Source: Limnomonas spitsbergensis (taxonomy: Eukaryota; Chlorophyta; Chlorophyceae; Chlamydomonadales). From it: a stretch of 64,000 nt of DNA. The translations under genes were made by a program, and so were the position numbers. Below, in pieces: positions 17,761-63,734 of the stretch. The notes beneath the pieces are model-generated. The model was not told the origin of the DNA and made no database searches. It worked only from the letters and a program-made list of their open reading frames with translations. The DNA is taken from positions 434,001-498,000 of the forward strand of contig JAYJMM010000076.1 in assembly GCA_037349105.1 (NCBI GenBank), written 5' to 3'. The stretch's first letter is position 1. The number at the start of each line of letters is the position of its first letter.

Positions 17761-17870
17761 CCCTGTGATCCTCTCCCACCTGTGATCCTCTCCCACCTGT
17801 GATCCTCTCCCACCTGTGATCCTCTCCCACCTGAGATCCTCTCCCACCTGTCCCCCCCCCCCCCCCCCCC
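17761..17870. repeat. 17-bp repeat (TGATCCTCTCCCACCTG) and C-run
   Basis: About five copies of a 17-bp unit follow the 60-bp satellite directly and end in a run of about 20 C. Unit 2 carries about 18 copies at the same place (42,763-43,072), so this small array also varies between the two copies. Confidence 0.93.
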
Positions 17871-18549: not shown

Positions 18550-18646
18550 GCCTTTGACCTGGTCCTCGCGTCTGGCTTCTCGAAGATGGTGGCTTCGTCC
18601 GCCACGTATCCGCACGAGGTGGTGCGGTCTCAGATGCACATTACGG
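18550..18646 (+). CDS. Carrier copy 1, exon with third-repeat signature
   Basis: Acceptor CTGCCCCAG, 32 codons plus one base, donor GTGAGC. It encodes [20 protein letters not shown] then [12 protein letters not shown]. The equivalent exon in copy 2 is 43,783-43,879. Confidence 0.9.
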
Positions 18647-29326: not shown

Positions 29327-29495
29327 TTGCGGTCAAACTGCTTGAGCTCCATTTCGTCCAGACTGCCCAAGCCGTCATCCGTCGCATCGGGCGCAGGCAG
29401 TCCAGGGGAGGATCCAGATCCAGCCGTCCCACCTCGTCCCCAGGGGCCAAGCACAGGGTCGGAGGAGGACGGGGTGCCACCAGGCAGAGGGGGCG
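29327..29495 (-). pseudogene. Truncated exon of the minus-strand gene (unit 1 copy)
   Basis: On the minus strand the frame reads TPSSSDPVLGPW ... DDGLGSLDEMELKQFDR and ends at a GTAAGAG donor. It matches 51,928-52,096 of unit 2 but is cut at its 5' side by the duplication junction. It therefore lacks an acceptor and cannot be spliced to its own upstream exons. Confidence 0.6.
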
Positions 29496-29496
29496 A
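29495..29496. other. Junction between duplicated units
   Basis: Left of here the sequence (GTGCCACCAGGCAGAGGGGG) matches 52,065-52,096. Right of here it becomes the carrier's EF-hand exon, while unit 2 continues with CCCACCTGCGTCAGG. This is the expected head-to-tail joint of a tandem duplication. Confidence 0.75.
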
Positions 29497-29563
29497 GTTC
29501 GTTGCTTACGTGCGCCAGCGCGAGGAATTCCTGACCGCGCTATTCGACCAGATTGACAGCCTG
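29495..29563 (+). CDS. Carrier copy 2, exon a: EF-hand 1 entering helix
   Basis: Reads [20 protein letters not shown] plus DSL, donor GTAAATAAG. This is an EF-hand E-helix with the loop's first Asp. The frame stays open upstream across the junction to about 29,117 through G-rich repeats, so the true start cannot be set. Confidence 0.65.
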
Positions 29564-32500
29564 GTAAATAAGAGCGGGCTTTGTCCATAGCTTTACGGCA
29601 TGTGCTTATGGGCATGGCATTCTAGCATACATGAGTATGGGCCTGGCAATATGGCAAGACTCGCAGGCTGCTCTCTTCGACCAGGTTCAAAGCCAGGTCG
29701 AGGAGAGAGCAAGTCTTACCCCCAGGCACATGCTGGTGTGGCGCACCCCTCTGAGAGCAGACAATAAAGACACGCAACCAGCACATGGGCTGGCAGTAGG
29801 GCATGGCTGTCGCAACCTGCACACCTGGTGCAGATGTACTATTGTACTTATGTTGTACAGAGCACTACATCGCTCTATACTGTCTGTGCCTCCTAAGGAT
29901 GCGATATATCATCCATTGCACAGCCCAGATGTACATCAGTATTCTCAGACCTAGAAGCTTTAGGAACGATACAATGGCGCATGGGCATGGCGCATGTGTG
30001 CATGGGCATGGCGATAGGGCACACACGCATGGGCATGGCAGTATGTCACATGGGCGTGGCATTAGGGCACATGCGCATGGCAACAGGTCATATGCAGTTA
30101 TGCACATGGGCCTACGGCAGTGTTGGTATGGCACGGTGACTAGCAAGGTGTGTGCCTTATGCCTGCCTTTCCTGTGAAAAGGCCTAGGTGTGTACAAGGG
30201 GACAAGGGCACAAGGGGGGGGGGGAAGTGTGAAACAAATTCCGTCCATACTGCCGGCCGCTTTTAGACCCCCCCGCCTGTTTAAATGACCCGAGGCCCGG
30301 GGTTGGAAACCCTGGCCCCTCATCTTGTATGGCCTACCACGGGTGTGAGCCAAGCAGGGGGCATGCTGCACAAGGCTCTGCCAGCCGCGGGGTTGTGTTG
30401 TAGTAGCTGAAGTGTAGCTGAAATGTATCTGACATGTATCTGACATGGTGCTGACATGGAGCTGAAGTGTGGCAGAAGTCCTCTTGAATAGCCTATACAT
30501 ATTTTCACCCGGCATGGGCTCATGCTGCCCCAAGCGTCTCCCAAGCGACAGTGCAGGAGGTAGCTGAACAGTAGCTGAACTGTAGCTGTATGGGAGACGG
30601 GCCCCTCACGCTACAAGCGTGAGCTCCGCCATGTGCGTGCCATAACCGCGCCGGAGCTGTAAGAAGTAAGAACTCCGCGTGGTTTCCAATCCTTCGTGAT
30701 GTTTAGCGGGTCCCTAGGTATAGGCGGTTAGACCTGCCCGTACGGGATACGCGCATTCTTCCCTGTGTCATTGCAATTGTGGATCAATCACCGCGCCGGA
30801 GCTGCCAGCCCACTACCAGCGAGTGATGGGATGACCCGCCCGCCATCTTTTGTCTTGCTGTAGATTCACTTTGCCTTCGCTCATAATTAACGTTGTTTTG
30901 GGTTGAGGGATAAGGATTTTGGGAGGGATTCGTGATTATCGCATGTCGACGCCAGTTTCCACTCAAAAAATGATGCAAACAGACAATGAGTTAAGTAGAA
31001 AGACCATGAGACAAGTGCAGGTCATGCAGGTTGCATGGTGCATCCGGTCGGAGCCAAGCAAGCCATGCAACGGTCTGTGTCTGTGTCTTTGGAGCCAGGC
31101 AAGTCATGTAGCACCAGCCATGTTTGGCATGCATAAGCCCATGAGTCCAGGAGTCAAGAGTTTGCCCTGAGGGCAGCATTCGAAGACATCATGTTTTCAC
31201 ACCCGAGGGAAGGCAGAACAAATCAAATCTACTGTATGTAATCCTGAACCCTGAACTAAACCCTGAACAAAACCCTGAATCAAACCCTGAACCCGCATTG
31301 CTCACAACAGGGCGAGCAGGACGGGCACATCACCGTGCCGGAGCTGCAGGCCTACCTCCAGCAGGTGATGCGGCGACCAGTCAGCAAGGCGGAGGCTCAG
31401 GCGCTGCTGGAGAAGCTGGACACGGACAAATCTGGGACCGTGGAGTATTCGGAGCTGCTTCAGGTGACAGGGGTATAGATGTGTGGACTGATGTGTGGAC
31501 TGATGTGTGGAATGATGTGTGGAGTGATGTGTGGACTGATGTGTGACTGCTGCCCCTGGATAAGCTGGACACAGACAAATCTGGGACCGTGGAGTATGCG
31601 GAGCTGCTTCAGGTGACAGGGGTATAGATGTGTGGACTGATGTGTGGACTGATGTGTGACTGCTGCTCCTGGATATGCTGGACACGGACAAATCTGGGAC
31701 CGTGGAGTATTCGGAGCTGCTTCAGGTGACAGGGGTATAGATGTGTGGACTGTGGCTGCTAGTTGGAGTGTTTAGGGTTCAGGATTTAGGGTTGAGACCC
31801 TTAGACCCTAAACCCTGCCCCCTCCACCCTCCTCTTCCCTTTGACCCTGAACACTACCCCCCCCCCCCCTTCCTCCTCTTCTCTTACCCTAAATCCTGCA
31901 CCCTGAGATATAAATCCCTCCACATTTTCCCTTAGACCCTGAACCCTCCTCGGGATGGCGGGGCAACCTCTTGACGGCAGGCAATGTCACCAAGGTTTTC
32001 TGCCTCTGATGCCGTGCCCTTCCCCCATCCCTCCTCTCTGCCCTTATGCCCTGAACCCACCTCTCCCGGCCTGTAGGTTATTATTTTGACGGTCTATGAC
32101 GCGTCCGAGGTATCTGGATCTGGAGCCATGCACCTATCCCCCACCCCCCTCTCCTACCTGAGATCCTGAACCCTCAAGCCCTGCACCCTCCTCTCCTCCC
32201 TTAAACCCAGAACCCTCCGCCCATAAACCCTGAACCCTCCTCCCTTAAGCCCTGAACCCTCCTCAAAGTATACCCTCCTCCGCAGGGTATTCTTTTGACG
32301 GCTGGTGACGCCACCGAGGTTCTGGACCTGGAGCCATGAACCTATCCGCCTCTCCTACCTGAGACCCTGAACCCTTGACCCTTTGCCATTAAACCCCGAA
32401 CCCTCCTCCTCCTCCGCAGGGTATTCTTTTGACAGCCGGTGACGCCACGGAGGTGTTCTGGATCTGGAGCCATGAACCTATCCGCCTCTCCTACCTGAGA

Positions 32501-35500
32501 CCCTGAACCCTTAACCCTTTGCCATTAAACCCCAAACCCTCCTCCTCCTCCGCAGGGTATTCTTTTGACGGCCGGTGACGCCACCGAGGTGTTTCGGATC
32601 TGGAGCCATGACCCCGAGCACTTCTACCTCAGCACCCCGTCACCAACGCCCACCTCGCCCCTTGTGACGGTCACGGCAGGGCTCATTGCAGGTGTGTGAG
32701 CTGGCGTTGAGGGTTTAGGGTATAGCCGCCCCTTGTGACGGTCACGGCATGGCTCATTGCAGGTGTGTGAGCTGGTGTTGAGGTTTGAGGGTCTAGCCGC
32801 CCCCATGTGACGGTCACGGCATGGCTCATTGCAGGTGTGTGAGCTGGGGTTGAGGGTTTAGGGTCTAGCCGCCCCCATGTGACGGTCACGGCATGGCTCA
32901 TTGCAGGTGTGTGAGCTGGGGTTGAGGGTTTAGGGTCTAGCCGCCCCCATGTGACGGTCACGGCATGGCTCATTGCAGGTGTGTGAGCTGGGGTTTAGGT
33001 TTGAGGGTCTAGCCCCCCCCATGTGACGGTCACGGCATGGCTCATTGCAGGTGTGTGAGCTGGGGTTTAGGTTTGAGGGTCTAGCCCCCCCATGTGACGG
33101 TCACGGCATGGCTCATTGCAGGTGTGTGAGCTGGGGTTGAGGGTTTAGGGTCCAGCCGCCCATTGTGACGGTCACGGCATGGCTCATTGCAGGTGTGTGA
33201 GCTGGGGTTGAGGGTTTAGGGTCTAGCCGCCCATTGTGACGGTCACGACAGGACTCATTGCAGGTGAGTGAGCTGGGGTTGAGGGTTAGGGTCTAGCCCC
33301 CCTCCATGTGACGGTCACGACAGGACTCATTGCAGGTGAGTGAGCTGGGGTTGAGGGTTAGCCCCCCCATGTGACGGTCACAGCAGGGTTCATTGCAGTT
33401 GAGTACAGAAGAGGAGGGGAGTAGGGGGGAGATTTGTAGGGGGGGGAGGGTTGCCGAGGACTCCCACCCCACCCCTTGTGTCGGTCACGGCTGGACTCAT
33501 TTCAGGTGTGCGAAGAAAATGAGGGAAGGGGAGGGGAGGAGGGGGGAGGAGGACAACAGAGTTAGGGTATGGGGCCGGAGGCATGTCCATGAGGCCATGA
33601 CTGTCACCCCGCCCATTGTGACGGTCACGGCTGGACTTGTTGCAGGTGTGCAAAGAAAATGAGGGAAGGGGAGGGGAGGAGGGGGGAGGAGGACAACAGA
33701 GTTAGGGTATGGGGCTGGAGGCACGTCCATGAGGCCATGACTGTCACCCCGCCCATTGTGACGGTCACGGCTGGACTTGTTGCAGGTGTGCAAAGAAAAT
33801 GAGGGAAGCGGGGGAGGGGAGGAGGGGGGAGGTTTTTTTTTGTGGGAGGAGGAGGAGAAGGGATGGGGGCAGGGAGGAGGAGGAGGAGAATGGGTGGGGT
33901 GGGGGAGGAGAAGGAATGGGGAGGAGGAGGAGAAGGGGTGGGGGGGGGGGGAGGAGGAGGAGGAGAAGGGGTGGTGGGGGGAGGATGAGGAGAAGGGATG
34001 GGGGGGGAGGAGGAAAAGAAGGGGTGGGGGGAAGGAGGAGGAGAAGGGATGGGGGGGGGAGGAAAAGGAGGAGAAGGGATGGGGGGGGGGGGGGGGGGGA
34101 GGAGGGGGAGGAGGAGGGTGTGTCTTGAGATGGTGGAGGCATACTGGCATACCCATGACTCTCACCTCACCAATTGTCTGGAGGGGAGGGGAGGAGGGGG
34201 GAGAAGGAGAAAATAGTTGGGGTATGGGGTGGAGGCATACCCATGACTCCCACCTCACCAATCGTCTGGAGGGGAGGGGAGGAGGGGGGAGAAAGAGAAA
34301 ATAGTTGGGGTATGGGGTGGAGGCATACCCATGACTCTCACCTCACCAATTGTCAGGAGGGGAGGGGAGGAGGGGGGAGAAGGAGAAAATAGTTGGGGTA
34401 TTGGGTGGAGGCATACCCATGACTCCCACCTCACCAATCGTCTGGAGGGGAGGGGAGGAGGGGGGAGAAGGAGAAAATAGTTGGGGTATGGGGTGGAGGC
34501 ATACCCATGACTCTCACCTCACCAATTGTCAGGAGGGGAGGGGAGGAGGGGGGAGAAGGAGAAAATAGTTGGGGTATGGGGTGGAGGCATACCCATGACT
34601 CTCACCTCACCAATTGTCAGGAGGGGAGGGGAGGAGGGGGGAGAAGGAGAAAATAGTTGGGGTATGGGGTGGAGGCATACCCATGACTCTCACCTCACCA
34701 ATTGTCAGGTTCACGGCCGGAGGTATTGCAGGTATGTCTATCACTACCGCGGTGGTCTTTACCCTCCCCCCTCCCCCCTCCCCCCTCCACTAGCATCCAC
34801 CCAGCCATTCCCCTCCCTGCTCCCTCCTCCCTCCCCTCTCCCTCTTTCCCTCCTTTACCCCCCCCCTCCCTCTCTGCCATTCTCAATTGCTCCCTTTTGC
34901 CTACTCCCCTCTCTGCTCCCCTCCCCCCCCTCTCCCTCCTTCCCTACTTCCCTCCTCCCCCTGCTCGCAACCACCCAGCCATTCTCCTCCCCTCTCCCTC
35001 CTCCCTCCTCCCCCACCTGCCTTAGGGGGTATCACAGCCGCGGTGATGTGCCCGCTGGATGTGCTCAAGACCCGGCTCCAGGTCCAGAGGAGCGGCACAG
35101 CGGCAGGCGGCATCATAGGTGTGGCTGTTATCTGGGCTGAGTTAGCTGGGCTGATTGAGCTGGGCTGATTGAGCTGGGCTGATTGAGCTGGGCTGAGTTA
35201 GCTGGGCTGATTGAGCTGGGCTGATTGAGCTGGGCTGATTGAGCTGGGCTGAGTTAGCTGGGCTGAGTTAGCTGGGCTGATTGAGCTGGGCTGATGTAGT
35301 ATTGCAGCTGGGCCGGGAGGGCGGATGGCAAGGTTTACACTGGGCATGCTGAAGACCCGGCTGCAGGTCCAGAGGAGCGGCAAGGCGGCAGGAGGCATCA
35401 TAGTTGAGACCATGAGCTAGGCTGGGCTGATTGAGGCATTGAGCTGGGCTGATTGAGCTGAGCTGAGTTAGTATCGGGGCTGGGCCGGGGTAGGGGGGGG

Positions 35501-38500
35501 GGGTACCCGCTGGATGTGCTCAAGAACCGGCTGCAGGTCCAGAGGAGCGGCACGGAGGCAGGAGGCATCATAGGTGAGGCTGTGAGCTGGGCTGACTTAG
35601 CTGAGCTGATTTATTGTTGCGGCTGGGCCGCGAGGGGGGGGGGTGCAAGATTTAACCTGGGCATGCTCAAGACCTGGCTGCAGGTTCAGAGGAGTGGGGG
35701 TGGAGGTGGAGGGGGTGGGTGGTGGGGGTGGGTGGTGGAGATGGGTGGTCGAGGTGGTGGGGTTGGGCGGTGGGGGTGGAGGTGGTGGCTCGGCGGCAGG
35801 AGGCATCATTGGTGAGATCATGAGGCATGGGGATGTGGGGGTGGGTGTGGAGGGGGTGGGGGGTGGAGGTGGGGGGTGGGGGTGGGTGGTGGAGGTAGGT
35901 GGTGGGAAGGGTGGCGGGGGTGGGATGTACATATGGCCGTGGGGGGTGGGTGTGGAGGGGGTGGGTGGAGGGGGTGGGTGGTGGAGGTGGGTGGTGGAGG
36001 TGGGTGGCGGGGGTGGGATGTACATATGGCCGTGGGGGGTGGGTGTGGAGGGGGTGGGTGGTGGGGGTGGGTGGTGGGGGTGGGTGGTGGAGGTGGGTGG
36101 TAGAGGTGGGTGGCGGGGGTGGGATGTACATATGGCCGTGGGGGGTGGGTGTGGAGGGGGTGGGTGGTGGGGGTGGGTGGTTGCGAGGAGGTGTAGTGCA
36201 CACACGCGTGCACACGCACACACACATACACACCAACACGCACACACACACACACGGGCCGCCCTCATCCTCAATCCCTTGCTGCTCCCGCACGAGGTCT
36301 GAGGAGCATCGTGGCACGTGAGGGGCCTCTGGTTTGTACACACACGCACACACCTACGGGCCGCCCTCACCCTCCATCCCTTGCCGCCTCCGCATGGGTC
36401 TTTGGAGCATCGTGGCCATACCTAAACCCTGAACCTTAATCCCTAAACCCACACACATATACCCTTGCCGCCCCCGCGGAGCATCGTGGCGCGCGATGGC
36501 GTTTCTGGCTTGTACAAGGGGCTGGCGACGTCGCTCATGACCACGAAATAACTTGAAATAATTTCCCCATGAAATAATTTCCCCATGACCACCAGCAAGC
36601 ATACATGTACACACAAAACACACACACACACACATGCACGTACGGGCCCCCCTCACCCTCGATCGGTGCCCACGAAGGAGGTCTCCGGAGCATCGTGGCG
36701 CGTGAGGGCGTCCTTGGGTTGTACAAGGGCCTTGCGCCGTCGCTCATCGCGCTCCTTCCCAACTGGGCGGTGTACTTCACGATGTACGACATACTGAAGG
36801 AGCACCTCAGCCGCCGACCAGGAGGTACGGTGTACTGCTTGACATGCGGTACAGTGTGGGCGTGAAGGACAACGGGGCAGTGTATAGCTTTTTGATTCTC
36901 AGTCTTATAATGTGATTGTGTCACCAAGTGTGCCTCCTCCGCCAATCCCTTGACATGGTTCCAAGGTTTCATCACTGCTCTAAGGTTGTATCACTGTTCT
37001 AAGGTTGTAAAGAAAACTACGCCCCGTGTGGGGCGTGAGTGTTAAGAAGACGGCGCAGCCTGGGCCGAAGCCACGTCCGCGCTGTCACCGTATTGTATTG
37101 CAATTATAATGATGTATCACGGTTCCAAGTTTGTGTTACAGTTCTAAGGTTATATCACGCTTATAAGGTTCTATCACAGTTATAAGGCTGTTTTTATCTC
37201 CATTGTTTCCCCAACAGGCACGTCGGCCCCCGCAACGCCGGTGCTGCACATGTCGGCTGCTGCGGGCGCCGGCATCGCAACCATCTTGGTCACCAACCCG
37301 CTGTGGGTCGCGAAGACACGTATCCAGACGCAGGATCTGGAGAGTGTCAAGGCATTGGTGCGTTAGGGACTTGGAGTATCAGTGACTGTGAATTTGTTAT
37401 TTGTAACCTGTTTTTTTGACTAGGTTTTTTATTTATTCATTTGGATTTGCAACCGGTATTTATTTATTTATTTATTCATTTGGATTTGCAACCGGTACCG
37501 TATTTATTTATTCATTTGGATTTGCAACCGGTATTTATTTATTCATTTGGATTTGCAACCAGTATTTATTCATTTATTTATTCATTTGGATTTGCAGCCG
37601 GTATTTATTTATTACTGTAAAGTGGACTTGGTGTTATTCCTGGTGGTGGATTTGTTATTATTCATTAATTCGTTAACGGTGTGCCGGTACGTCGTTTATA
37701 TTCATCAATTGTTGTGGATTTTGTACTTAATTATGGTGACCGCATTATTGGGCGCGGTGGATGGGGGTTATTCGTAACAGTGGATTTTTATTTGGAAAGG
37801 CGGGTGTGTCATTCTTTATGGTTGCTTTTTATAATTAATTTTTGTTTTTAACGGTGGGTTTATTTTCTGTCTGTGGATTTGCAACCGGTGTATATTGGGC
37901 AGTGTAATTATGCAATACGGTGATTTTGTGTTTTTGTCTTTTTATTTCAGCAAGGAGTCCCACACCGCCGCGTTCAACGCCCCATGCCACGTCCTACCCG
38001 GGGCCTGCCTACCTTCCTATTTGTATCTTCCTGATCTCCCCCTCCCACCTGCCGGCCCAACTCCGCCGCGTTCAACGCCCCATGCCATGTCCTTCCCCGG
38101 GCCTGCCGGGACATATTTGTTAAATTTTCTCCTAGTCTCCCTTTCTCGCCGTGTTTCCCGCCGTGTTTCCCGCCGTGTTTCCCGCCGTGTTTCTCGCCGT
38201 GTTTCCCGCCGTGTTTCTCGCCGTGTTTCTCGCCGTATTTCTCGCCGTGTTTCTCGCCGTGTTTCTCGCCATGTTTCCCGCCGTGTTTCTCGCCGTGTTT
38301 CCCGCCGTGTTTCCCGCCGTGTTTCCCGCCGTGTTTCCCGCCGTGTTTCTCGCCGTGTTTCCCGCCGTGTTTCCCGCCGTGTTTCCCGCCGTGTTTCTCG
38401 CCGTGTTTCCCGCCGTGTTTCCCGCCGTGTTTCCCGCCGTGTTTCTCGCCGTGTTTCCCGCCGTGTTTCTCGCCGTGTTTCTCGCCGTGATTCCCGGTAG

Positions 38501-41500
38501 CCCTACCACGACGACACATTTATCCCAGTCTCCCTCTCCCACTGTGTTACATATCACCCGGCGGCCCTACTCCCTATGCACATTTTTATCAGTCTCCCTT
38601 TCCCGCCGTGGCCCTACTACGACACCCTCAATGCTTTGCACCGCATCGCAACCAAGCCGCATCCCCCTCCGCTCCGGGCCTGCCTATTTATTTTGCACTT
38701 CCCGACCTCCCTACGTATTTCAGATGACCCAGCGGCCCTACTCCGGCGCGCTCTGTACCGCCTTGTAACGCATCGCAGCAACATGACGTCCCGCTCCGAC
38801 CCTACCTGCCATCCTAATAACGATTATGTTTCCCAGTCTCCCGATACGTGTTTCAGATGACCCGGCGACCCTACTCCGGCGCATTGAACGCGTTGTACGG
38901 CATCGCGGCAACGTCCCGCTCTGCTCCGCTCCGGGCCTGCCTTTTTGTTTTGATTTTCCGATCTCCTAACGTGTGTGTTCAGATGATCCGGCGGCCCTAC
39001 TCCGGCGCATTCAACGCGTTATACCGCATAGCAGCTGAGGAGGGCCGGGCGGGGCTGTACAGCGGGCTGATCCCCTCCCTCTTCGGGGTGGTCCATGTGG
39101 CTATACAGGTGGGGGTGAAAGGGAGGGTTGAGGGTTGAAGGCTGAGGGCTGATCCCCAACCTCTTTTGGGTGGTCTATGTGGCTATACAGGTGGGGGTGA
39201 AAGGGAGGGTTTATGTTGAGGGCTGAGGGTTGAGGGCTAATAGTTGAGGATTGATCCCCTCACTCTTCGGGGTATGGTCCATGTGGCTATACAGGTGGGT
39301 GGCGTTAGGGAGGGGATAGAAAACAAATATATATAGGGACGGTGGTGGAAAAAAAAAATTGGAATCAAGGTTGAGGTTTCGGTGCTGCCCCCCGCCCCAT
39401 GTTTGGGGTAAGGTCCATGTGGCGATTCAGGTGGGTGGCGTTAGGGTGAACGCTGAACCCTGAACCCGGAACCCTGAACCTTGAATCCTGAACCCTGAAC
39501 TTTGAACCAATTTCACACATTTACTTAGTGTGAATGCGTAACACCTCACGTAATATCACTGCTTGCATCTTGATCCGCAGTGTCCTCCATACGAGTACTG
39601 CAATGCCAAGCTGGACCCACTTACCAATTTCACAAATTTCACACATTTAGTGTGAATGCTGAACCCCTACCCCTACTTGAGATATATGGTCATGCATCTT
39701 GATCCGCAGTTCCCTCTCTATGAGCATTTCAAGGCCAAGCTGGCGGAGTCCAGAGGCCTACCCGTGGCGGAGCTGCAGGTGTGATGTGTGGGAACTGTGT
39801 GGATCTGAGTGATGTGTGGGGACTGCAACGGTAGGATGTGTGAACGGTGTGGATCAGTTACACTCCTTGCAGTCGAGGCTGCGTGTAGATTTCTTCGATG
39901 CAGCTTTAACGCCCAGACTTGAATTGCCATGGTATGGATGAATGAAGGGTACGAATGAATACATGGTATGGATGAATGAAGGGTATGAATACATGGTATG
40001 GATGAATGAAGGGTACGAATGAATACATGGTATGGATGAATGAAGGGTACGAATGAATACATGGTATGGATGAATGAAGGGTACGAATGAATACATGGTA
40101 TGGATGAATGAAGGGTACGAATGAATACATGGTATGGATGAATGAAGGGTATGAATACATGGTATGGATGAATGAAGGGTATGAATACATGGTATGGATG
40201 AATGAAGGGTACGAATGAATACATGGTATGGATGAATGAAGGGTACGAATGAATACATGGTATGGATGAATGAAGGGTATGAATACATGGTATGGATGAA
40301 TGAAGGGTACGAATGAATACATGGTATGGATGAATGAAGGGTACGAATGAATACATGGTATGGATGAATGAAGGGTATGAATACATGGTATGGATGAATG
40401 AAGGTTACGAATGAATACATGGTATGGATGAATGAAGGGTACGAATGAATACATGGTATGGATGAATGAAGGGTATGAATACATGGTATGGATGAATGAA
40501 GGGTACGAATGAATACATGGTATGGATGAATGAAGGGTACGAATGAATACATGGTATGGATGAATGAAGGGTATGAATACATGGTATGGATGAATGAAGG
40601 GTTTGAATACATGGTATGGATGAATGAAGGGTACGAATGAATACATGGTATGCCAGGTTTGAATGGTTTGAATTGATAGTCCATTGTTAATTAATGATTC
40701 TGACATCAGCACTCTGTAGCACCAGCAGTGAGAGGGCATGATGTCGACCCTTATCCACCCTTTCCCTCATCTTCCATCCACCCTTTTCCATCCGCTCTGT
40801 TCCTCTCGTTTGTGTGACTGGCCTCGTTTATTCACCCTTTATCCCATCGCCTCTGTCGACCGCTCTGTTTTGTTTAAGGCTGAGGGTTTTGTTTGTGTAT
40901 AGGTTTGGGGGTTCAGGGTTCAGGGTTTTGTTTGTGCTTCTGTAGGTCTTTAACCTGCCCAGTCCCTACGATTCTTTTCCACCTGGCATTCCTGCCAGTT
41001 TTTCATTTTCGGCTACTAGGCCACTTTCGCCTCAGGGCCGCCCTGAGGCCATCAAAGGCCCGATCGTGACCAGACCTTGGCCGGCCTATCAGTGGCTGCC
41101 AAACTGGCACTGCTGGCCTCCGGCCAGAGGCTGGAATGTAGCGCCCGACTCTATTTCCTGCGCACCCGACTCTATTCCTGCGCTGCAGCAGGCCTGTAAC
41201 ATTTCGTTGGGTCACCGCTCTGATATTCCACCACCCCGATCTGTATCCGTTTGGAACATCAAAACTTCGAATGCTAGGAAGCTGACTTTCCCCCACATCC
41301 CCCCGTTTACTTTGCATTGCCGCCCACACGCTGTTTTTACCCCTCTCGGCCCCCACATCAGCCCACTCGGTTCCCTCCCCGGATACATCGTGTGCCGTCC
41401 TGGACCTTCCACCTCTCCGCCCAACATTTTTGTAACCCGGAGGGAATTCAGTGGAGTGGAAAAAATAATGTTTTCCCTACCACACGGTGCCCTCTCCGTA

Positions 41501-44500
41501 CCTTGCGCTGCCTTAGGGGCCTTCGATCTCTTATCCTGGCATTACAATTATTTGGTCGACATGAAATTACTTGAAATAGAAAGTTCAATGTTTTTGTATC
41601 CCTTTTAGGTGTCGAGATCTGCCTAGTCCCTGTGCTCCTCCCCCACCTCAACATGTTATCCCTTTTAGGTGTCGAGATCTGCCTAGTCCCTGTGCTCCTC
41701 CCCCACCTCAACATGTTATCCCTTTTAGGTGTCGAGATCTGCCTAGTCCCTGTGCTCCTCCCCCACCTCAACATGTTATCCCTTTTAGGTGTCGAGATCT
41801 GCCTAGTCCCTGTGCTCCTCCCCCACCTCAACATGTTATCCCTTTTAGGTGTCGAGATCTGCCTAGTCCCTGTGCTCCTCCCCCACCTCAACATGTTATC
41901 CCTTTTAGGTGTCGAGATCTGCCTAGTCCCTGTGCTCCTCCCCCACCTCAACATGTTATCCCTTTTAGGTGTCGAGATCTGCCTAGTCCCTGTGCTCCTC
42001 CCCCACCTCAACATGTTATCCCTTTTAGGTGTCGAGATCTGCCTAGTCCCTGTGCTCCTCCCCCACCTCAACATGTTATCCCTTTTAGGTGTCGAGATCT
42101 GCCTAGTCCCTGTGCTCCTCCCCCACCTCAACATGTTATCCCTTTCAGGTGTCGAGATCTGCCTAGTCCCTGTGCTCCTCCACCACCTCAACATGTTATC
42201 CCTTTTAGGTGTCGAGATCTGCCTAGTCCCTGTGCTCCTCCCCCACCTCAACATGTTATCCCTTTTAGGTGTCGAGATCTGCCTAGTCCTTGTGCTCCTC
42301 CCCCACCTCAACATGTTATCCCTTTTAGGTGTCGAGATCTGCCTAGTCCCTGTGCTCCTCCCCCACCTCAACATGTTATCCCTTTTAGGTGTCGAGATCT
42401 GCCTAGTCTTTGTGCTCCTCCCCCACCTCAACATGTTATCCCTTTTAGGTGTCGAGATCTGCCTAGTCCCTGTGCTCCTCCACCACCTCAACATGTTATC
42501 CCTTTTAGGTGTCGAGATCTGCCTAGTCCCTGTGCTCCTCCCCCACCTCAACATGTTATCCCTTTTAGGCGTCGAGATCTGCCTAGTCCCTGTGCTCCTC
42601 CCCCACCTCAACATGTTATCCCTTTTAGGGGTCGAGATCTGCCTAGTCCCTGTGCTCCTCCCCCACCTCAACATGTTATCCCTTTTAGGTGTCGAGATCT
42701 GCCTAGTCCCTGTGCTCCTCCCCCACCTCAACATGTTATCCCTTTTAGGTGTCGAGGTCTTCCCTGTGATCCTCTCCCACCTGTGATCCTCTCCCACCTG
42801 TGATCCTCTCCCACCTGTGATCCTCTCCCACCTGTGATCCTCTCCCACCTGTGATCCTCTCCCACCTGTGATCCTCTCCCACCTGTGATCCTCTCTTACC
42901 CGTGATCCTCTCCCACCTGTGATCCTCTCCCACCTGTGATCCTCTCCCACCTGTGATCCTCTCCCACCTGTGATCCTCTCCCACCTGTGATCCTCTCCCA
43001 CCTGTGATCCTCTCCCACCTGTGATCCTCTCCCACATGTGATCCTCTCCCACCTGTGATCCTCTCCCACCTGTCCCCGCCCCCCCCCCCCCCCCCCCCCC
43101 CCCCAACATTTGTATTCTCACACTGTCCAGTCCCCGCTCCGTCTTCTGCATACCTGCCATAGGCCTTTGACCTTCCCACCCTCCATACCTTGGCCTCACA
43201 CTTGTACCTTTTCCACCCTTCTATGTTCTATGGTACCAGCAATTCTTGGTGCTGCCGTTGGTTTATTTTCCACCATGCTCTGTTTCCCATTCGTTTTTCT
43301 GCGTGCCTTCCATAGGCCACCGACCTTACCACCTGAAGCACCTTTTCGAAGAAACGGTAACGGACATGCTGTCCCCCCTTTTACCACCCACTCTGCTCCA
43401 CCCGTTCTCACACTTTTTCGCCACCCCTTTCACCACCCACTCTGCTCTCCCCGTTTTCTGCACTGCCCGACATTTCATTTGTCACCCAGCTCTGTTCCCC
43501 GCTCCATTTCCCTCAACCCTAAACCCAGCTCTGTTCCCCGCTCCGTTTTCCTTAGATCCTAAACCCTCAACCCAGCTCTGATCCCCGCTCAGTCTTATTT
43601 AAACCCTCGACCCTTAGCCCATCTCTGTTCCCCACTCCGTTTCCCCTAATCCCTCAACGCAGCTCTGTTCCCCACTCCGTTTTCCCTAAACCCAACCCAG
43701 CTCTGTTCCCCACTCCGTTTTACCTAAACCTTAAAACCTTAACCCAGCTCTGTTCCCCACTCCGCTTTCCGCACTGCCCCAGGCCTTTGACCTGGTCCTC
43801 GCGTCTGGCTTCTCGAAGATGGTGGCTTCGTCCGCCACGTATCCGCACGAGGTGGTGCGGTCTCAGATGCACATTACGGGTGAGCAAGGGGTGGGGGGGG
43901 GGACTACTTATCCAGCGGGGGGGGGGGGGGGCACTATATTCAGATATTTTGAAACGCTCAAGAGAGTTACAGGTCAGCTACACTCCAGCTACAGTGCAGC
44001 TACACTCCAGCTACCAAGCACGAGGTGGTGTGCTCTCATATGCACATCACGGGCGGGGCTTATCTTTGAACGTTTCAGCCTCTGTTCAGCTACAATTTAG
44101 CTACAATGCCGCTACAAATAAAATGCAGTTCAGCTACAGTCCAGCTATAATTAATTTAACGCGCGAGGTGGTGCGGTTCCAGAGGCACATAACGGGTGAG
44201 CCTAGGAGGGTAGGCAAGGGTTTAGGGGTTTAGGGTTAAGATGCTCATTATGTCTCAGCTGCACTTCAGTTACAGTGAGGTCCCAGCCGCAGGTCATGCT
44301 GTAGCTGAAGTATAGCTGAACTCTAGCTGAAGCATCCTCAGCTCAACAGTGCCCCCCCTCTCCCCCCTTGTTGTTCCCTGCTGCCTGTTGCCCTGCAGGC
44401 GCTCGCAGCCGCATGCCCCGATGTAGCTGAAGTGTAGCTGAACTCTAGCTGAAGCATCCTCAGCTTAACAGCGCCGCCCCCCCTCCCCCTATTGTGGATC

Positions 44501-46709
44501 CCTGCTGCCTTGATCTGCAGGCGCTCGCAGCCGCATGTCACGCTGTAGCTGAACACTAGCTGAGATGTAGCTGAAATGTAGCTGAGGCATTCTCAGCCTA
44601 GCAACAACCCCCTCCCCATATTGTGGATCACTGCTGCCTTGCCCCTGCAGGCGCTCGCAGCCGCATGTCACGATGTAGCCAAAGTGCAGCTAAATGTAGC
44701 TGAAATGTAGCTGAAGAAGTACAGAATGAACATCACCGTCATCCGTCACCTTTCCCCCTGGTGGCTCCCTGCCGCCTTTTGCCCTTCAGGCTCGGCATCT
44801 TTCGATGGATGCGTGAAAGCGATTCAAAAAGTGTGGCTCGAGGATGGCATCAGGGTGAGTCCAGTGCTAGGGGGAGGGAGGGGGAGGCGGGAGGGGGAGG
44901 GGGGAGGGAGGGGGAGGGGGGAGGGGGAGGCGGGAGGGGGAGGGGGGGCTCAGCTCCTCTGTTGGTTGGTGCGTGTCTGTTTGGGTTAAGTTGCTGGTCT
45001 GTCCCAGCTCGCTCTGCCTGGCCCTTTCAAAAAAGGCGGCAGCGTGGGTGGTCTTGTTGAGTCTCCCGTGCGACTGTCACAACGAAACGCGTTGGTCCAT
45101 TCCTGCCATGATCACTGCACCCGTACATCCAGAGAGAGAGAGAGATGTAACCAACTGAATATGTAACCAACTGAATATGTAACCAACTGAATATGTAACC
45201 AACTGAATATGTAGACAACTGAATATGTTGACAACTGAATATGTAACCAACTGAATATGTAACCAACTGAATATGTAACCAACTGAATATGTAACCAATT
45301 AAATATGTAACCAACTGAATATGTATCCAACCAAATCTGTAACCAACTAAACCCGGGGTGGGGGGAAGTCCAGTACCCCATAACGTGCGGTGCAGTCATG
45401 TGTATATTCACATGCCGATGCCGATGCCGATGCCGATGCCGATGCCGATGCCGATGCCGATGCCGATGCCGATGCCGATGCCGATGCCGATGCCGATGCC
45501 GATGCCGATGCCGATGCCGATGCCGATGCCGATGCCGATGCCGATGCCGATGCCGATGCCGATGCCGATGCCGATGCCGATGCCGATGCCGATGCCGATG
45601 CCGATGCCGATGCCGATGCCGATGCCGATGCCGATGCCGATGCCGATGCCGATGCCGATGCCGATGCCGATGCCGATGCCGATGCCGATGCCGATGCCGA
45701 TGCCGATGCCGATGCCGATGCCGATGCCGATGCCGATGCCGATGCCGATGCCGATGCCGATGCCGATGCCGATGCCGATGCCGATGCCGATGCCGATGCC
45801 GATGCCGATGCCGATGCCGATGCCGATGCCGATGCCGATGCCGATGCCGATGCCGATGCCGATGCCGATGCCGATGCCGATGCCGATGCCGATGCCGATG
45901 CCGATGCCGATGCCGATGCCGATGCCGATGCCGATGCCGATGCCGATGCCGATGCCGATGCCGATGCCGATGCCGATGCCGATGCCGATGCCGATGCCGA
46001 TGCCGATGCCGATGCCGATGCCGATGCCGATGCCGATGCCGATGCCGATGCCGATGCCGATGCCGATGCCGATGCCGATGCCGATGCCGATGCCGATGCT
46101 GACGCCACCCACTACCACCCTTTCACACATGCTCCTCACTCTTTCGCACACACCTGTTCATCACTCTTTTGTCCATGCCTGTTCTTCACTTTTTGGTCCA
46201 CACCTGATCCTCACTCTTGTGTCCACACCTGATCCTCACACTTTTGAGGTGTAGGGCTTACCTACCGCGGCCGCACTCACCTTCACGAGCTTTGGCCCTG
46301 GTCACCCCGGTGCTCTTTGTCCTCCACACCTTCGTGCCCCCTACACGTTTTCACACCTGCGGCCTGCCTTCCACACTATTCCACCCCTGCCCCTAACAGG
46401 GGCTGCCTAGGGTTTCCACCACGCGGCTGCCTCACCCACCTCTGCCCAACCACGCCGTCCGCTGCGCTCGCTTTCACCAGCTTACAGCTCGTTTACCGGA
46501 GATGCCAACTGTCTTCCACACCTGTGCCCCTCACAACATTCCACACCTGCCCCCCTCACACTTTTGCTTTTCAGGGCTTCTACCGTGGCTGCATCACCAA
46601 CCTCTGTCGGACGACGCCGGCCGCCGCACTCACCTTCACCAGCTTTGAGCTCGTTTCAAGGATGCTGAAAGAGGTCATAGGGGCCCACGCAAGCAACAAG
46701 CAGAAATAG
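29495..46709 (+). CDS. EF-hand / NDT-type mitochondrial carrier, copy 2 (11 exons seen)
   Basis: Exons are 29,495-29,563, 31,311-31,463, 32,556-32,691, 35,026-35,118, 36,681-36,824, 37,218-37,357, 38,983-39,108, 39,710-39,778, 43,783-43,879, 44,790-44,854 and 46,575-46,709. They join in frame into 408 residues plus TAG. Residues 1-74 carry EF-hands: one split across an intron, and a canonical loop [12 protein letters not shown] at 60-71. Residues from about 110 form a full three-repeat SLC25 carrier with signatures PLDVLKTR (129-136), NPLWVAKTR (225-233) and YPHEVVRSQ (330-338). Tryptophan in the second signature is typical of the NDT/SLC25A32-33-36 group. NAD+ or a related nucleotide/folate is therefore the likely cargo, across an inner mitochondrial or plastid membrane, possibly with calcium control. 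The 5' end is uncertain because the duplication junction falls in the first exon. Confidence 0.88.
29564..31310 (+). other. Intron a-b: minisatellite and decoy exon copies
   Basis: At about 29,665-29,705 a decayed copy of exon a reads [13 protein letters not shown]. At 29,950-30,110 GGGCATGGC units repeat. At 30,405-30,595 TAGCTGAA elements recur. At about 30,640-30,665 and 30,786-30,835 GCGCCGGAGCTG... copies resemble the start of exon b (GTGCCGGAGCTGCAGGCCTA). Confidence 0.65.
31311..31463 (+). CDS. Carrier copy 2, exon b: EF-hand loops
   Basis: 51 codons, donor GTGACA. It contains [14 protein letters not shown] (end of EF-hand 1) and [20 protein letters not shown] (EF-hand 2). A second possible acceptor 6 bases downstream (exon from 31,317) would restore a standard 12-residue first loop, [12 protein letters not shown]. 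With the upstream AG the loop is two residues longer. Confidence 0.85.
31464..31740 (+). pseudogene. Two decayed copies of the end of exon b with donors
   Basis: The segment from [15 protein letters not shown] through GTGACAGGGGTATAGATGTG recurs at about 31,559-31,612 and 31,672-31,723. Each keeps its GTGACA donor but lacks an acceptor and the upstream exon half. Twelve-bp GTGTGGACTGAT units lie between them. Confidence 0.85.
31950..32480 (+). pseudogene. Four decayed copies of the start of exon c
   Basis: GTATTCTTTTGACGGC..GTGACGCCACCGAGGT...TGGATCTGGAGCCATGA recurs at about 31,953 and 32,077 (weak), 32,284 and 32,419 (strong), before the intact exon at 32,556. The strong copies keep a CGCAG acceptor and are about 136 bp apart. 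After the GGAGCCATGA block they run into intron sequence. Confidence 0.82.
32556..32691 (+). CDS. Carrier copy 2, exon c: linker into first helix
   Basis: Acceptor CCTCCGCAG, 45 codons plus one base, donor GTGTGTGAG. It reads [20 protein letters not shown], then a Ser/Thr/Pro linker and [12 protein letters not shown], the start of transmembrane helix 1. Confidence 0.85.
32692..33800 (+). repeat. Ladder of exon-c 3' ends with donor sites (72-bp, then about 140-bp units)
   Basis: GTGACGGTCACGGC.TGGCTCATTGCAG followed by GTGTGTGAGC recurs about 11 times at 72-bp spacing, then at about 33,479, 33,617 and 33,761 in longer units. Each copy repeats the last ~30 bases of exon c ([10 protein letters not shown]) together with its GT donor and TTAGGG-like intron sequence. 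Confidence 0.9.
33800..34130 (+). repeat. Polypurine G/A tract
   Basis: More than 300 bases almost free of pyrimidines on the plus strand (GGAGGAGGAG, GGGGGGGGAGG). It has triplex/quadruplex potential and yields spurious Gly/Glu/Arg-rich frames. Confidence 0.92.
34131..34740 (+). repeat. 88-bp repeat, about seven copies, ending in another exon-c-like donor
   Basis: The unit contains GGAGGCATACCCATGACTCT, CACCTCACCAATTGTC and a GGGGAGGGGAGGAGG run. The last unit ends in CAGGTTCACGGCCGGAGGTATTGCAG before GTATGTC (read as [13 protein letters not shown]), another diverged copy of the exon-c 3' end. Confidence 0.88.
34741..35025 (+). other. Pyrimidine-rich intron end
   Basis: C/T-rich sequence (CCCTCCCCCCTC, CTCCTCCCTC) leads into the acceptor CTGCCTTAG at 35,025. 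No exon is visible. Confidence 0.8.
35026..35118 (+). CDS. Carrier copy 2, exon d: first SLC25 signature
   Basis: Encodes [20 protein letters not shown] then [10 protein letters not shown]. It joins phase 1 to phase 1 with its neighbours. PLDVLKTR is the classic Pro-x-Asp-x-x-Lys signature of repeat 1. Confidence 0.92.
35119..35830 (+). pseudogene. Three decayed copies of exon d plus GAGCTGGGCTGATT repeats
   Basis: CTGGATGTGCTCAAGA..CGGCTGCAGGTCCAGAGGAGCGGC...GGAGGCATCATAG recurs at about 35,340-35,405, 35,505-35,572 and 35,660-35,812. The third is split by a G-rich insertion. Copies lose the Lys or frame (for example [21 protein letters not shown]), and one keeps a GTGAGG donor. Fourteen-bp GAGCTGGGCTGATT units fill the gap. 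Confidence 0.85.
35690..36190 (+). repeat. GGTGGGTGGTGG-type G-rich minisatellite
   Basis: It contains four 85-100-bp higher units with GGGATGTACATATGGCCGTG inside GGTGGGGGTGGGTGG repeats. Quadruplex potential is high. A CA-rich microsatellite follows (36,190-36,260). Confidence 0.9.
36283..36545 (+). pseudogene. Three decayed copies of the start of exon e
   Basis: GGTCT..GGAGCATCGTGGC recurs at about 36,294, 36,398 and 36,476. The last extends to GGCTTGTACAAGGGGCTGGC..CGTCGCTCAT before breaking off. The intact exon follows at 36,681. Confidence 0.85.
36681..36824 (+). CDS. Carrier copy 2, exon e: end of repeat 1 and helix 2
   Basis: Encodes [20 protein letters not shown] then [30 protein letters not shown] is the conserved second half of an SLC25 repeat, and NWA.YFTMYD matches the NDT family closely. 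Confidence 0.92.
36825..37217 (+). other. Intron e-f with ATCAC..TTCTAAGGTT repeats
   Basis: Short degenerate 18-20-bp units (TATCAC.GTTCTAAGGTT) occupy about 36,955-37,190. At 37,019-37,085 lies a dispersed element starting with the hairpin ACGCCCCGTGTGGGGCGT. An inverted relative is at about 53,345-53,430. Confidence 0.75.
37218..37357 (+). CDS. Carrier copy 2, exon f: second SLC25 signature
   Basis: Encodes [38 protein letters not shown] and DLESVKAL. Acceptor CCCCAACAG, donor TTG/GTGCGT. Trp in place of the usual acidic residue after NPL marks the NDT/SLC25A32-33-36 subgroup. Confidence 0.92.
37415..37620. repeat. A/T-rich minisatellite (TTTATTCATTTGGATTTGCA)
   Basis: Six or so units of TATTTATTCATTTGGATTTG then CAACCGG, with variable TTTA runs. 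The rest of the intron to 37,950 is unusually A/T-rich for this window. Confidence 0.9.
37945..38980 (+). pseudogene. Decayed copies of exon g and a 12-bp repeat
   Basis: Segments at about 37,960, 38,055, 38,600, 38,724 and 38,857 repeat CGGC.CCCTACTCCGGCGC.TT.AACGC.TTGTACCGCATCGC in various states of decay. The last ([18 protein letters not shown]) keeps a TTTCAG acceptor but lacks the second half. At 38,145-38,490 about 29 units of CCGTGTTTCTCG (12 bp) occur; their open frames (RRVS, AVFP) are spurious. Confidence 0.82.
38983..39108 (+). CDS. Carrier copy 2, exon g: repeat 2 loop and helix 4
   Basis: Encodes [40 protein letters not shown] then IQ. Acceptor GTGTTCAG, donor CAG/GTGGGG. EEG..GLYSGL.PSL...HVAIQ is strongly NDT-like. 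Confidence 0.92.
39109..39440 (+). pseudogene. Three decayed copies of the exon-g end with donors
   Basis: TCGGGGT..GGTCCATGTGGCTATACAG before GTGGG recurs at about 39,148-39,193, 39,252-39,295 and 39,403-39,430, spaced by GAGGGTTGAGG-type sequence. The last reads GTGGCGATTCAG. Confidence 0.85.
39573..39640 (+). pseudogene. Decayed copy of exon h with acceptor
   Basis: GCATCTTGATCCGCAG is followed by a sequence that pairs base for base with exon h (CTCCATACGAGTACTGCAAT...CCAAGCTGGA) but is altered and truncated. The intact exon has the same GCATCTTGATCCGCAG acceptor. Confidence 0.85.
39710..39778 (+). CDS. Carrier copy 2, exon h
   Basis: 23 codons reading [20 protein letters not shown] then ELQ, donor GTGTGA. 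FP.YE..K is the conserved end of repeat 2 in NDT-type carriers. Confidence 0.9.
39930..40650. repeat. 34/30-bp minisatellite (GGTATGGATGAATGAAGGGT), about 22 units
   Basis: Two unit lengths alternate: 34 bp (ACGAATGAATACAT tail) and 30 bp (ATGAATACAT tail). The minus-strand frames of YPSFIHT type are artefacts. Confidence 0.95.
40651..41604 (+). other. Middle of intron h-i, decoy exon-i start, no gene seen
   Basis: C/T-rich sequence. At about 41,505-41,545 CTGCCTTAG is followed by GGGCCTTCGATCTCTTATCC, resembling the acceptor and start of exon i (CTGCCCCAG, GCCTTTGACCTGGTCCTC). No other coding segment is visible. Confidence 0.6.
41605..42760. repeat. 60-bp satellite, short version of about 19-20 copies
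   Basis: The same unit as at 1-17,760, but nearly all copies carry GCTCCTCCCCCACCTC and AGATCTGC, a variant combination not seen in the long array. It starts after AATGTTTTTGTATCC and ends with the same TCGAGGTCTTCCCTGTGATC transition into the 17-bp repeat. Confidence 0.97.
42763..43104. repeat. 17-bp repeat, about 18 copies, and C-run
   Basis: TGATCCTCTCCCACCTG in tandem, ending in a C-run of about 25. Longer than the five-copy version at 17,761. Confidence 0.93.
43783..43879 (+). CDS. Carrier copy 2, exon i: third SLC25 signature
   Basis: Identical in protein to the exon at 18,550. It encodes [20 protein letters not shown] and [12 protein letters not shown], phase 1 donor GTGAGC. Decoy ends follow at about 44,020 and 44,164. 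Confidence 0.92.
44790..44854 (+). CDS. Carrier copy 2, exon j
   Basis: 65 bases, same protein as 19,583-19,647 with a silent CTT to CTC difference. It is preceded by the same three decoy acceptor repeats (44,285-44,705) and followed by the G-run tract at 44,870-44,950. Confidence 0.92.
45145..45345. repeat. 16-bp repeat AACCAACTGAATATGT
   Basis: About 12-13 copies, the unit-2 counterpart of 19,939-20,150. Confidence 0.93.
45412..46098. repeat. (CCGATG)n hexanucleotide microsatellite, about 115 copies
   Basis: Uninterrupted and apparently perfect over nearly 690 bases; all six frames are open (Asp-Ala, Pro-Met, Arg-Cys, Ser-Ala, Gly-Ile repeats), so none is evidence of a gene. Unit 1 has no hexamer at this place (20,204): about 85 bp of ordinary intron stand there instead. 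Confidence 0.98.
46257..46515 (+). pseudogene. Decayed copies of exon k in unit 2
   Basis: Unit-2 counterparts of the decoys at 20,437 and 20,578. The 20,219 decoy has been lost where the hexamer array sits. Confidence 0.75.
46575..46709 (+). CDS. Carrier copy 2, terminal exon k
   Basis: 44 codons and TAG, encoding [37 protein letters not shown] and HASNKQK. Acceptor TGCTTTTCAG. Confidence 0.92.
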   Translation, partial: GFYRGCITNLCRTTPAAALTFTSFELVSRMLKEVIGAHASNKQK

Positions 46710-47380
46710 GGCGTCAGGCGGGTGCGCCCCAGCCAGGCTGAAGGCGCCAGTTCCAAGCTTGTTTCACGGATGCGGAGAGAGTTTATTGGGGCCCGCGCAA
46801 GCAACAAGCAGGACTAGGGCGTCAGGCAGGCGCGCCCTGACCAGCTGAAGGGCCAGCTGACGGTGCCGGTGGAGTCTGCAGCATGAAGTTTAAGGCAGTG
46901 TCGCGAGAGCCTGAGGCTTTCAGAATGTTTCATGTTGGGCCCGCGCTGACAAGCAGGGCCAGGGGAGTTCACGCGGGGTTTGGCGCCCCAGCCAGGCTGA
47001 AGGCGCCCCAGCCAGGCTGAAGGCGCCAGCTGAAAGTCTGCCGGTGGAGTCGGCAGCGTATGGCTTTTACGGCATCGTCGTTAGAGCCGGAAGCTTTCAG
47101 AATGTTTCACGTAGAGGCCCGCGCCGACAAGCAGGACTGGGGGAGGTCATGCGGGGTTTGGCGCCCCGGTCAGAGGTGGTGTTCGCAAGACTTTCGCTTT
47201 GTGTCCACTATCATGCGGGGGCCGTGCGCCCCGGTCAGAGGTGGTGTTCGCAAGACTTTCGCTTTGTGTCCACTATCATGCGGGGGCCGTGCGCCCCGGT
47301 CAGAGGTGGTGTTCGCAAGACTTTCGCTTTGTTTCCACTATCATGCGGGGGCCGTGCGCCCCGGCCAGAGGTGGCGTCCG
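46654..47380 (+). repeat. Tandem copies of the gene's 3' end (unit 2)
   Basis: Counterpart of 20,836-21,345. It is longer because a 65-bp unit (CGGTCAGAGGTGGTGTTCGC ... GCGGGGGCCGTGCG) has three copies at 47,164-47,360, and GCGCCCCAGCCAGGCTGAAG is doubled near 46,985. Confidence 0.8.
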
Positions 47381-51830: not shown

Positions 51831-51927
51831 CCAGATCAGCTCGAACAAACCCTACACACTACACCCTAAGCCCCTGCACCCTACGCCCCTTCATGGTGTT
51901 CGACAAACAAACAAAAGGGCCTCTTAC

Positions 51928-63480: not shown

Positions 63481-63734
63481 ATGCCCAGCCCCCACACATG
63501 GTGCACATGCCGTGCTTATGCCCGAAAACAAGCGGTGCACATGTTGCATGCAAACCACTCAGTGATGGCATACACGTAACTGAGCAGTAGCCGAACAGTA
63601 GCTGAGCTGTCGCTGAGCTCTGGGTTACCTTGATCAAAGCTGCAGGTGAGCTACATGAAGATAAGCACTGGGCCAGAGCGCAGACATGCCACCCACTTAC
63701 CAATGGGGTTTAGGGTTAAGGGTTTGGGGGTTAC

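What the first reader, a model, noticed from the sequence alone, without database searches (positions are those of the whole stretch)
29564..46709. Introns built from decayed copies of their own exon edges ('splice-junction stuttering')
Exons b, c, d, e, g, h, i, j and k of the carrier each have one intact copy accompanied by 1-11 decayed tandem copies of just the exon edge plus its splice site. Copies of an exon start lie upstream with their acceptor, and copies of an exon end lie downstream with their donor. That is what you expect if tandem duplications spanning an exon/intron border repeatedly lengthened the intron while selection kept one junction in use. I know of general models in which tandem duplication creates or extends introns, but not of one gene in which almost every junction shows it. 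Minus-strand exons here show it too, so it may be genome-wide.
Basis: partly seen in the sequence, partly recalled or inferred. Interest (0 to 1): 0.9.

Follow-up and report, generated by a model that had tools for sequence, protein, structure and literature searches.

The report
Introns stretched by copied exon edges
In what is very likely an Arctic snow alga, short pieces of DNA that straddle the borders between a gene's coding segments and its introns are present in rows of tandem copies, which likely arose by repeated accidental duplication that lengthened the introns and left dozens of look-alike splice sites that the cell is predicted to ignore.

Summary
In the window's mitochondrial-carrier gene, 11-12 of 20 exon edges have a same-strand copy in their own adjoining intron beyond all 200 shuffles, and none on the opposite strand. 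Copies of exon starts lie upstream, of exon ends downstream; 113 of 137 copies run through the junction. It occurs elsewhere in the genome but is patchy: 33 of 228 edges in 39 other loci, opposite strand 2 of 228. The genome matches Limnomonas spitsbergensis.

The interpretation needs a correction. Exon edges are not special: random intron points have local copies at least as often (110 of 309 against 39 of 170). The likely process is general local tandem duplication, with selection keeping one intact junction. The copies look neutral: third-codon-position mismatch ratio 1.88, about 2 expected for dead copies, 13.4 in real paralogous exons; copied GT/AG decay no faster than neighbouring dinucleotides. 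A near-identical second gene copy has different unit numbers, so turnover is recent. The window gene is itself a 5'-truncated tandem duplicate. No RNA was examined; which junctions are used is inferred.

The parts
29494..29563 (+). exon a, native part only (left of about 29494 the sequence belongs to the duplication joint); donor at 29564
   Evidence: 100% match to copy 0 from 29494 on; left of it 98.5% match to window 51900-52096
31311..31463 (+). exon b (EF-hand)
   Evidence: gene model
31556..31725 (+). two copies of the end of exon b with donor GT (113-nt array)
32077..32478 (+). three copies of the start of exon c with acceptor AG (136-nt units); a weaker fourth at 31962
32556..32691 (+). 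exon c
   Evidence: gene model
32727..33785 (+). 13 copies of the end of exon c, 12 of them with donor GT (72-nt then 140-nt units); a 14th, weaker, ends at 34731
35026..35118 (+). exon d
   Evidence: gene model
35347..35811 (+). four copies of the end of exon d
36294..36538 (+). three copies of the start of exon e; none keeps AG
36678..36824 (+). exon e
37218..37357 (+). exon f (no edge copies)
38724..38909 (+). two strong copies of the start of exon g with AG; three weaker ones at 38044, 38553, 38600. The one at 38857 would add 126 nt in frame without a stop
38983..39108 (+). exon g
   Evidence: gene model
39146..39430 (+). three copies of the end of exon g with donor GT; the farthest is absent from gene copy 0
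39581..39611 (+). copy of the start of exon h with AG
39710..39778 (+). exon h
   Evidence: gene model
41597..42760 (+). 60-nt satellite, 19.4 units, in intron h-i
43783..43879 (+). exon i
   Evidence: gene model
44018..44195 (+). two copies of the end of exon i; one keeps GT
44790..44854 (+). exon j (no exonic edge copies)
46411..46494 (+). copy of the start of exon k
46575..46709 (+). exon k with stop codon; a copy of its end lies in the 3' flank at 46756-46817
18550..20891 (+). exons i, j, k of the upstream, intact gene copy 0 (whole gene C76:411923-454891)
1..17762 (+). part of the same 60-nt satellite, 296 units, in intron h-i of gene copy 0

Best explanation
Rows of decayed copies of exon edges, most of which run through the splice junction, sit in the introns of this gene and likely arose by repeated local tandem duplication that strikes intron and exon edge alike, after which selection would have kept one intact junction. 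Shown by the calls: the copies are local, same-strand and spaced like tandem units; exon ends lie downstream and exon starts upstream; unit numbers differ between two near-identical gene copies; random intron points have copies at least as often. Inferred: a duplication that straddles a border is close to harmless, because the first donor (or last acceptor) still adjoins the intact exon, so the surplus becomes intron and decays neutrally. Because the exon is the only source of a fresh edge, each new copy would land beside the used junction and push older ones outwards, which fits similarity falling with distance in 15 of 17 arrays. Predicted, untested: the spliceosome ignores the decoys because each carries only one edge of an exon (exon definition). 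Whether slippage, microhomology repair or unequal exchange makes the duplications was not resolved.
For: Edge copies beyond all shuffles at 11-12 of 20 edges, opposite strand 0. 33 of 228 edges elsewhere, opposite strand 2 of 228, far edge of the same exon 1 of 228. 113 of 137 copies carry at least 6 intron-side nt. The exon-c unit was matched only at the two carrier copies (the search lists best candidates only). Edges 39 of 170 against intron points 110 of 309; edges outside the window 33 of 228 against exon centres 6 of 181, p=0.0001. Gene copies: exons 7 of 1161 nt different, nine introns 176 of 10037, yet whole units gained or lost; distal c-end units pair between copies at 70 and 68 of 70 nt, proximal ones do not pair one to one. 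Codon-position ratio 1.88 against 13.4 in paralogous exons. Read-through to a decoy meets a stop for 39 of 42 window copies. GT kept 0.81 against 0.81 for nearby dinucleotides, AG 0.71 against 0.59.
Against: The nearest copy is the best match in only 15 of 26 arrays with two or more copies, and by identity instead of score the fall with distance is 14 down, 2 up, 1 flat. The biggest c-end difference between gene copies lies inside the array, not at the exon. 7 of 90 random window intron points also matched the reverse complement, so part of the window signal is low-complexity sequence. 24 of 137 copies do not reach 6 nt past the junction. 26 of 137 copies come from one array, L045. Two copies outside the window set matched on the opposite strand. 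Samples hold paralog pairs, so edges are not fully independent, and splice sites outside the window come from a simple scoring script.
Confidence: 0.8

Rival explanations
1. Exon edges are preferred targets: something about splice sites or transcription (for example R-loops or AG|GT motifs) makes duplication start there, so introns are built outwards from their junctions.
For: The window gene is extreme, 12 of 20 edges against 18 of 108 in chaperonin genes (p=0.0001). Similarity falls with distance from the junction in 15 of 17 arrays. Turnover in the c-end array is on its exon-proximal side.
Against: Random intron points have local copies as often (window 52 of 90, p=1.0; chaperonins 33 of 148, p=0.34; other carriers 25 of 71, p=0.14) and pooled more often (p=0.005). 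Intron-intron copies decay on both sides, so the true intron rate is if anything higher (inference).
Confidence: 0.1
2. The copies are functional alternative junctions or exon parts, kept to make protein variants.
For: 22 of 26 donor copies keep GT and 7 of 16 acceptor copies keep AG; the acceptor copy at 38857 would add 126 nt in frame without a stop.
Against: 39 of 42 window copies lead to a stop on read-through. Codon-position ratio 1.88, not the 13.4 of paralogous exons. Copied GT/AG are not kept above GT's neighbours; AG is slightly above, 0.71 against 0.59. Copies almost never bear both exon edges (1 of 228).
Confidence: 0.04
3. The introns themselves were born from tandem duplication of exon segments holding AGGT (Rogers model).
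For: The raw process, tandem duplication, is the same; one of 32 chaperonin introns has similar ends (L045).
Against: In 0 of 10 carrier introns are the two ends copies of each other. Age of the introns could not be tested.
Confidence: 0.03
4. The copies are recursive-splicing (ratchet) points that help remove long introns in steps.
For: 20 of 26 donor copies in the window have AG|GT.
Against: Pyrimidine fraction upstream of them is 0.24-0.59 against 0.59-0.88 at used acceptors; the AG|GT follows simply from copying exon ends in AG; GT is kept no better than its neighbours.
Confidence: 0.02
5. Insertion of dispersed mobile elements (introners) or an assembly artefact.
For: The assembly is from PacBio continuous long reads (PMC11228838, passages read), which size perfect arrays poorly, for example (ATGCCG)114 at 45412-46099.
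Against: The exon-c unit was matched only at the two carrier copies (a capped search), and edges find no match in other introns except exon d's start in its own downstream intron. Units are diverged from one another and distal ones agree between two separately placed gene copies.
Confidence: 0.01

Closest known systems
[quoted passage not shown] passages of both read)
   Same: Tandem duplication supplies intron sequence; in the potato RdRp case the duplicated piece spans an intron/exon border.
   Different: There a new intron appears; here existing introns lengthen and the extra junctions stay decoys. Intron ends are not copies of each other (0 of 10 carrier introns).
Minisatellites and satellite DNA in introns (general knowledge)
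   Same: Head-to-tail units with changing copy number.
   Different: Many units include coding sequence and a splice site of the neighbouring exon, so the constrained exon serves as a fixed reference for age and decay.
Unexplained long introns of volvocine algae (PMC8226300, passages read)
   Same: A related group with conspicuously long introns; the authors write that whatever drives intron length is likely ancient.
   Different: Those are core-Reinhardtinia species; whether local tandem duplication acts there was not tested here.
Tandem (mutually exclusive) exon duplication (general knowledge)
   Same: Local duplication of exon sequence.
   Different: Whole exons with both splice sites are copied there; here copies bear one edge (far edge 1 of 228) and look neutral.

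Membership tests
Tandem-repeat (minisatellite) arrays | head-to-tail units on one strand | tested here: met
   (median spacing 125 nt); TRF covers 54% of this gene's intron bases
Tandem-repeat (minisatellite) arrays | unit number changes quickly | tested here: met
   whole-unit differences between gene copies 0.6% apart in exons
Intron gain by tandem duplication (AGGT model) | the two ends of the intron are copies of one exon segment | tested here: not met
   0 of 10 carrier introns, 1 of 32 chaperonin introns
Intron gain by tandem duplication (AGGT model) | intron absent from relatives | not testable with these tools
   no genome of a relative is held; only proteins
Introner or transposable element | copies dispersed over the genome | tested here: not met
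   exon-c unit matched only at the two carrier copies (best candidates only)
Tandem alternative exons | copy has both splice sites | tested here: not met
   far edge found for 1 of 228 edges elsewhere and for exon d here
Tandem alternative exons | open reading frame under constraint | tested here: not met
   39 of 42 with a stop; codon-position ratio 1.88
Recursive splicing sites | AG|GT with a good pyrimidine tract | tested here: inconclusive
   AG|GT in 20 of 26 donor copies; pyrimidine 0.24-0.59 against 0.59-0.88 at used acceptors
Recursive splicing sites | splicing intermediates | not testable with these tools
   no RNA data

The most novel reading that the evidence does not exclude
A junction conveyor: in this alga introns grow by tandem duplications that reach into exons, each fresh splice-site copy landing beside the used one and pushing older ones outwards, so that a gene can carry up to 14 one-sided decoy splice sites at one exon end under no visible selection; splice choice must then rest on pairing the two edges of an exon (strict exon definition), which makes this genome a ready natural experiment on how a unicellular alga picks one site among many.
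Probability: 0.45. Interest if true: 0.75.

Novelty: new variant of a known kind. Interest (0 to 1): 0.57.

Why it matters
It points to a still active way for introns to lengthen without transposons, in a group of algae whose long introns lack an explanation (PMC8226300, passages read). Because exons stay put while intron copies decay, exon-edge copies are marks by which intron growth can be dated. They also set a used splice site beside near-identical, apparently unused ones, so splice-site choice and the cost of decoys could be measured with transcript reads that exist for this species (IsoSeq, PMC11228838). For annotation it warns that duplicated exon edges can mislead exon calling.

Tried and rejected
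Considered and set aside: intron birth from AGGT duplication, dispersed elements, functional alternative exons, recursive splicing (not excluded), chance similarity, exon edges as preferred targets. Rfam at gathering scores and a tRNA scan of the window found nothing. Ten paper searches were sent, nine answered. In the titles and starts of abstracts listed there I saw no report of recurrent junction-spanning duplication lengthening introns; the lists are capped and subscription papers are missing, so this is no proof of absence. Microhomology at unit boundaries was thought of but not analysed.

Rows dropped before counts: 4 of 72 chaperonin matches were not used (68 used, 67 kept as exons after dropping one overlap). 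Of 120 carrier matches, 55 in 26 loci already held were used; loci L008, L023, L025, L026, L031, L032 were left out because they overlap others. The 26-copy L045 array and the 3' flank of exon k were left out of the counts and of the codon-position test. Edges for the copy list were chosen by score >=16.5, not by shuffles. Loci L021 and L024 hold stops inside their hits and were kept. Edges were tested with 100 or 200 shuffles, intron points and exon centres with 60. My note 3 says 24 carrier loci and note 2 says 13 starts and 5 ends; the right numbers are 26 loci, and 14 starts and 4 ends among the 18 inner chaperonin edges.

Full report
What it is. The window is G000:C76:434001-498000 of a genome of 260,226,709 bases in 124 contigs. 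The best named protein relatives of the carrier are Chlamydomonadales (Chlamydomonas eustigma 74%, UWO 241 57%), and the published Limnomonas spitsbergensis assembly is 260.248 Mb in 124 contigs (PMC11228838: abstract, passages and sections 18-20 read), so the organism is very likely that snow alga. The gene encodes a mitochondrial carrier with EF-hands.

The observation. For each of 20 exon edges facing an intron I aligned the terminal 45 exon nt to the adjoining intron. 12 edges beat all 200 dinucleotide shuffles with score 15 or more. With exon e corrected, 11 of 20 in the window copy and 12 of 20 in the second gene copy passed; reverse complement 0 in both; the far edge only for exon d, in both. 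Other introns of the gene held no match of 15 or more except for the start of exon d, found in its own downstream intron.

Elsewhere in the genome. In 13 chaperonin loci 18 of 108 inner and 1 of 26 outer edges had own-edge copies; reverse complement 2 of 134, far edge 0 of 134. In 26 other carrier loci 9 of 42 inner and 5 of 52 outer; reverse complement 0 of 94, far edge 1 of 94. 9 of 13 and 6 of 26 loci have at least one positive edge. The window gene is extreme (p=0.0001 against chaperonin inner edges); L053 is another, with 7 of the 14 positive edges of its set. Three chaperonin pairs are close paralogs, so the edges are not all independent.

Anatomy. Among 137 copies at 42 edges, 67 of 77 on the donor side and 46 of 60 on the acceptor side carry at least 6 nt of the intron side; 44 of the copies are in the window and 26 in one array, L045. 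Successive copies lie a median 125 nt apart (68 spacings; L045 left out). The exon-c unit was matched only at the two carrier copies (best candidates only). Tandem Repeats Finder covers 54% of this gene's intron bases and 10% of its exon bases. 3735 of 15985 intron nt lie between a used junction and its farthest strong copy (23%; 31% without intron h-i).

Are exon edges special? No. Random 45-nt intron points have a local same-strand copy in 52 of 90 (window; reverse complement 7 of 90), 33 of 148 (chaperonins; 1) and 25 of 71 (other carriers; 0); exon centres in 2 of 12, 3 of 108 and 3 of 73. Within each set edges and intron points do not differ (p=1.0, 0.34, 0.14); pooled, edges are rarer (39 of 170 against 110 of 309, p=0.005). 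Edges outside the window exceed exon centres (33 of 228 against 6 of 181, p=0.0001). Exon edges are thus best read as bystanders of general local tandem duplication; exon interiors are spared by selection, by unit size, or both.

Recent turnover. The carrier is a tandem gene pair: copy 0 at C76:411923-454891 and copy 1 in the window. Exons b-k differ at 7 of 1161 nt, nine introns at 176 of 10037 aligned nt. Copy 1 has one more exon-c-start unit (134 nt), 277 nt more in the exon-c-end array, 264 nt more in an 88-nt array and an extra exon-g-end copy; copy 0 has a few small extras of 8 to 26 nt. Intron h-i is 4,004 nt in copy 1 and 31,392 nt in copy 0, where a 60-nt satellite runs over about 29 kb. 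In the c-end array two distal units pair between gene copies (70 and 68 of 70 nt) while the proximal ones do not pair one to one. The match to the exon edge falls with distance in 15 of 17 arrays with three or more copies (p=0.002; by identity 14 down, 2 up, 1 flat), though the nearest copy is the best in only 15 of 26 arrays with two or more.

Dead copies. Mismatches between copies and exons by codon position are 200/1663, 172/1651 and 347/1642, a third-position ratio of 1.88. If the copy is neutral and only the exon is constrained, about 2 is expected (my reasoning); paralogous functional exons gave 13.4 (20/556, 4/555, 160/554). Read-through to a decoy meets a stop for 39 of 42 window copies. 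22 of 26 donor copies keep GT and 7 of 16 acceptor copies keep AG. Averaged over edges GT is kept at 0.81 against 0.81 for nearby dinucleotides (11 edges), AG at 0.71 against 0.59 (21 edges): no sign of selection against the decoys, and at most a slight excess of AG.

How it would work (inferred). A tandem duplication straddling a border leaves the first donor, or the last acceptor, next to the intact exon; the surplus becomes intron. The exon is the only source of a fresh edge, so later events push older copies outwards. That the cell uses the intact junctions is inferred from protein continuity with relatives and from the stops; no RNA was examined. That decoys are ignored because each bears one exon edge is a prediction.

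Caveat on the window gene. Its exon a is chimeric: left of about 29494 the sequence matches window 51900-52096 (98.5%), while copy 0 has a full exon a with EF-hand residues. The window gene is therefore a 5'-truncated duplicate of uncertain expression. The edge arrays are shared with copy 0 and so predate the duplication. Of the 7 exon differences 5 are synonymous.

Literature. Intron gain by tandem duplication is established (PMC3443670, PMC4974935; passages read), including one border-spanning case in which a new intron appeared. Long volvocine introns are reported without a known driver (PMC8226300, passages read). In nine answered searches, seen as listings, I found no report of the present pattern. 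Verdict: real, found across the genome, ordinary in mechanism but unusual in extent; a new variant of a known kind.

Noticed in passing
window 29494; C76:411923-486096: Tandem gene duplication with its joint inside exon a: the window's carrier lost its first EF-hand residues and is fused to sequence that also ends the downstream unit at window 52096; two or so bases could belong to either side.
   Followed up: partly
window 1-17762; C76:422713-451688: A 60-nt satellite fills most of a 31.4-kb intron (h-i) of gene copy 0, while the same intron in the window copy is 4.0 kb with 19 units.
   Followed up: partly
window 38857-38982: Acceptor copy of exon g whose use would add 126 nt in frame with no stop: the one decoy in the gene that could plainly give a protein variant.
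   Followed up: no
window 45412-46099: Perfect (ATGCCG)114 in intron j-k of the window copy; in gene copy 0 that place holds instead what looks like another decayed copy of the start of exon k.
   Followed up: no
L053 (C11:495500-505499): Another carrier gene with many edge copies (7 positive edges).
   Followed up: partly
L045 (C37:663500-673499), intron after its fourth exon hit: A 26-copy array that starts at the exon end and fills over 2 kb of the following stretch; the only chaperonin intron of 32 whose two ends resemble each other.
   Followed up: partly
window 24098-25738 and 50317-50782; 26179-29030; 58269-63499: Long 21-, 36-, 28- and 76-nt arrays between genes; tandem repeats cover 64% of the window.
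   Followed up: no
   Followed up: partly
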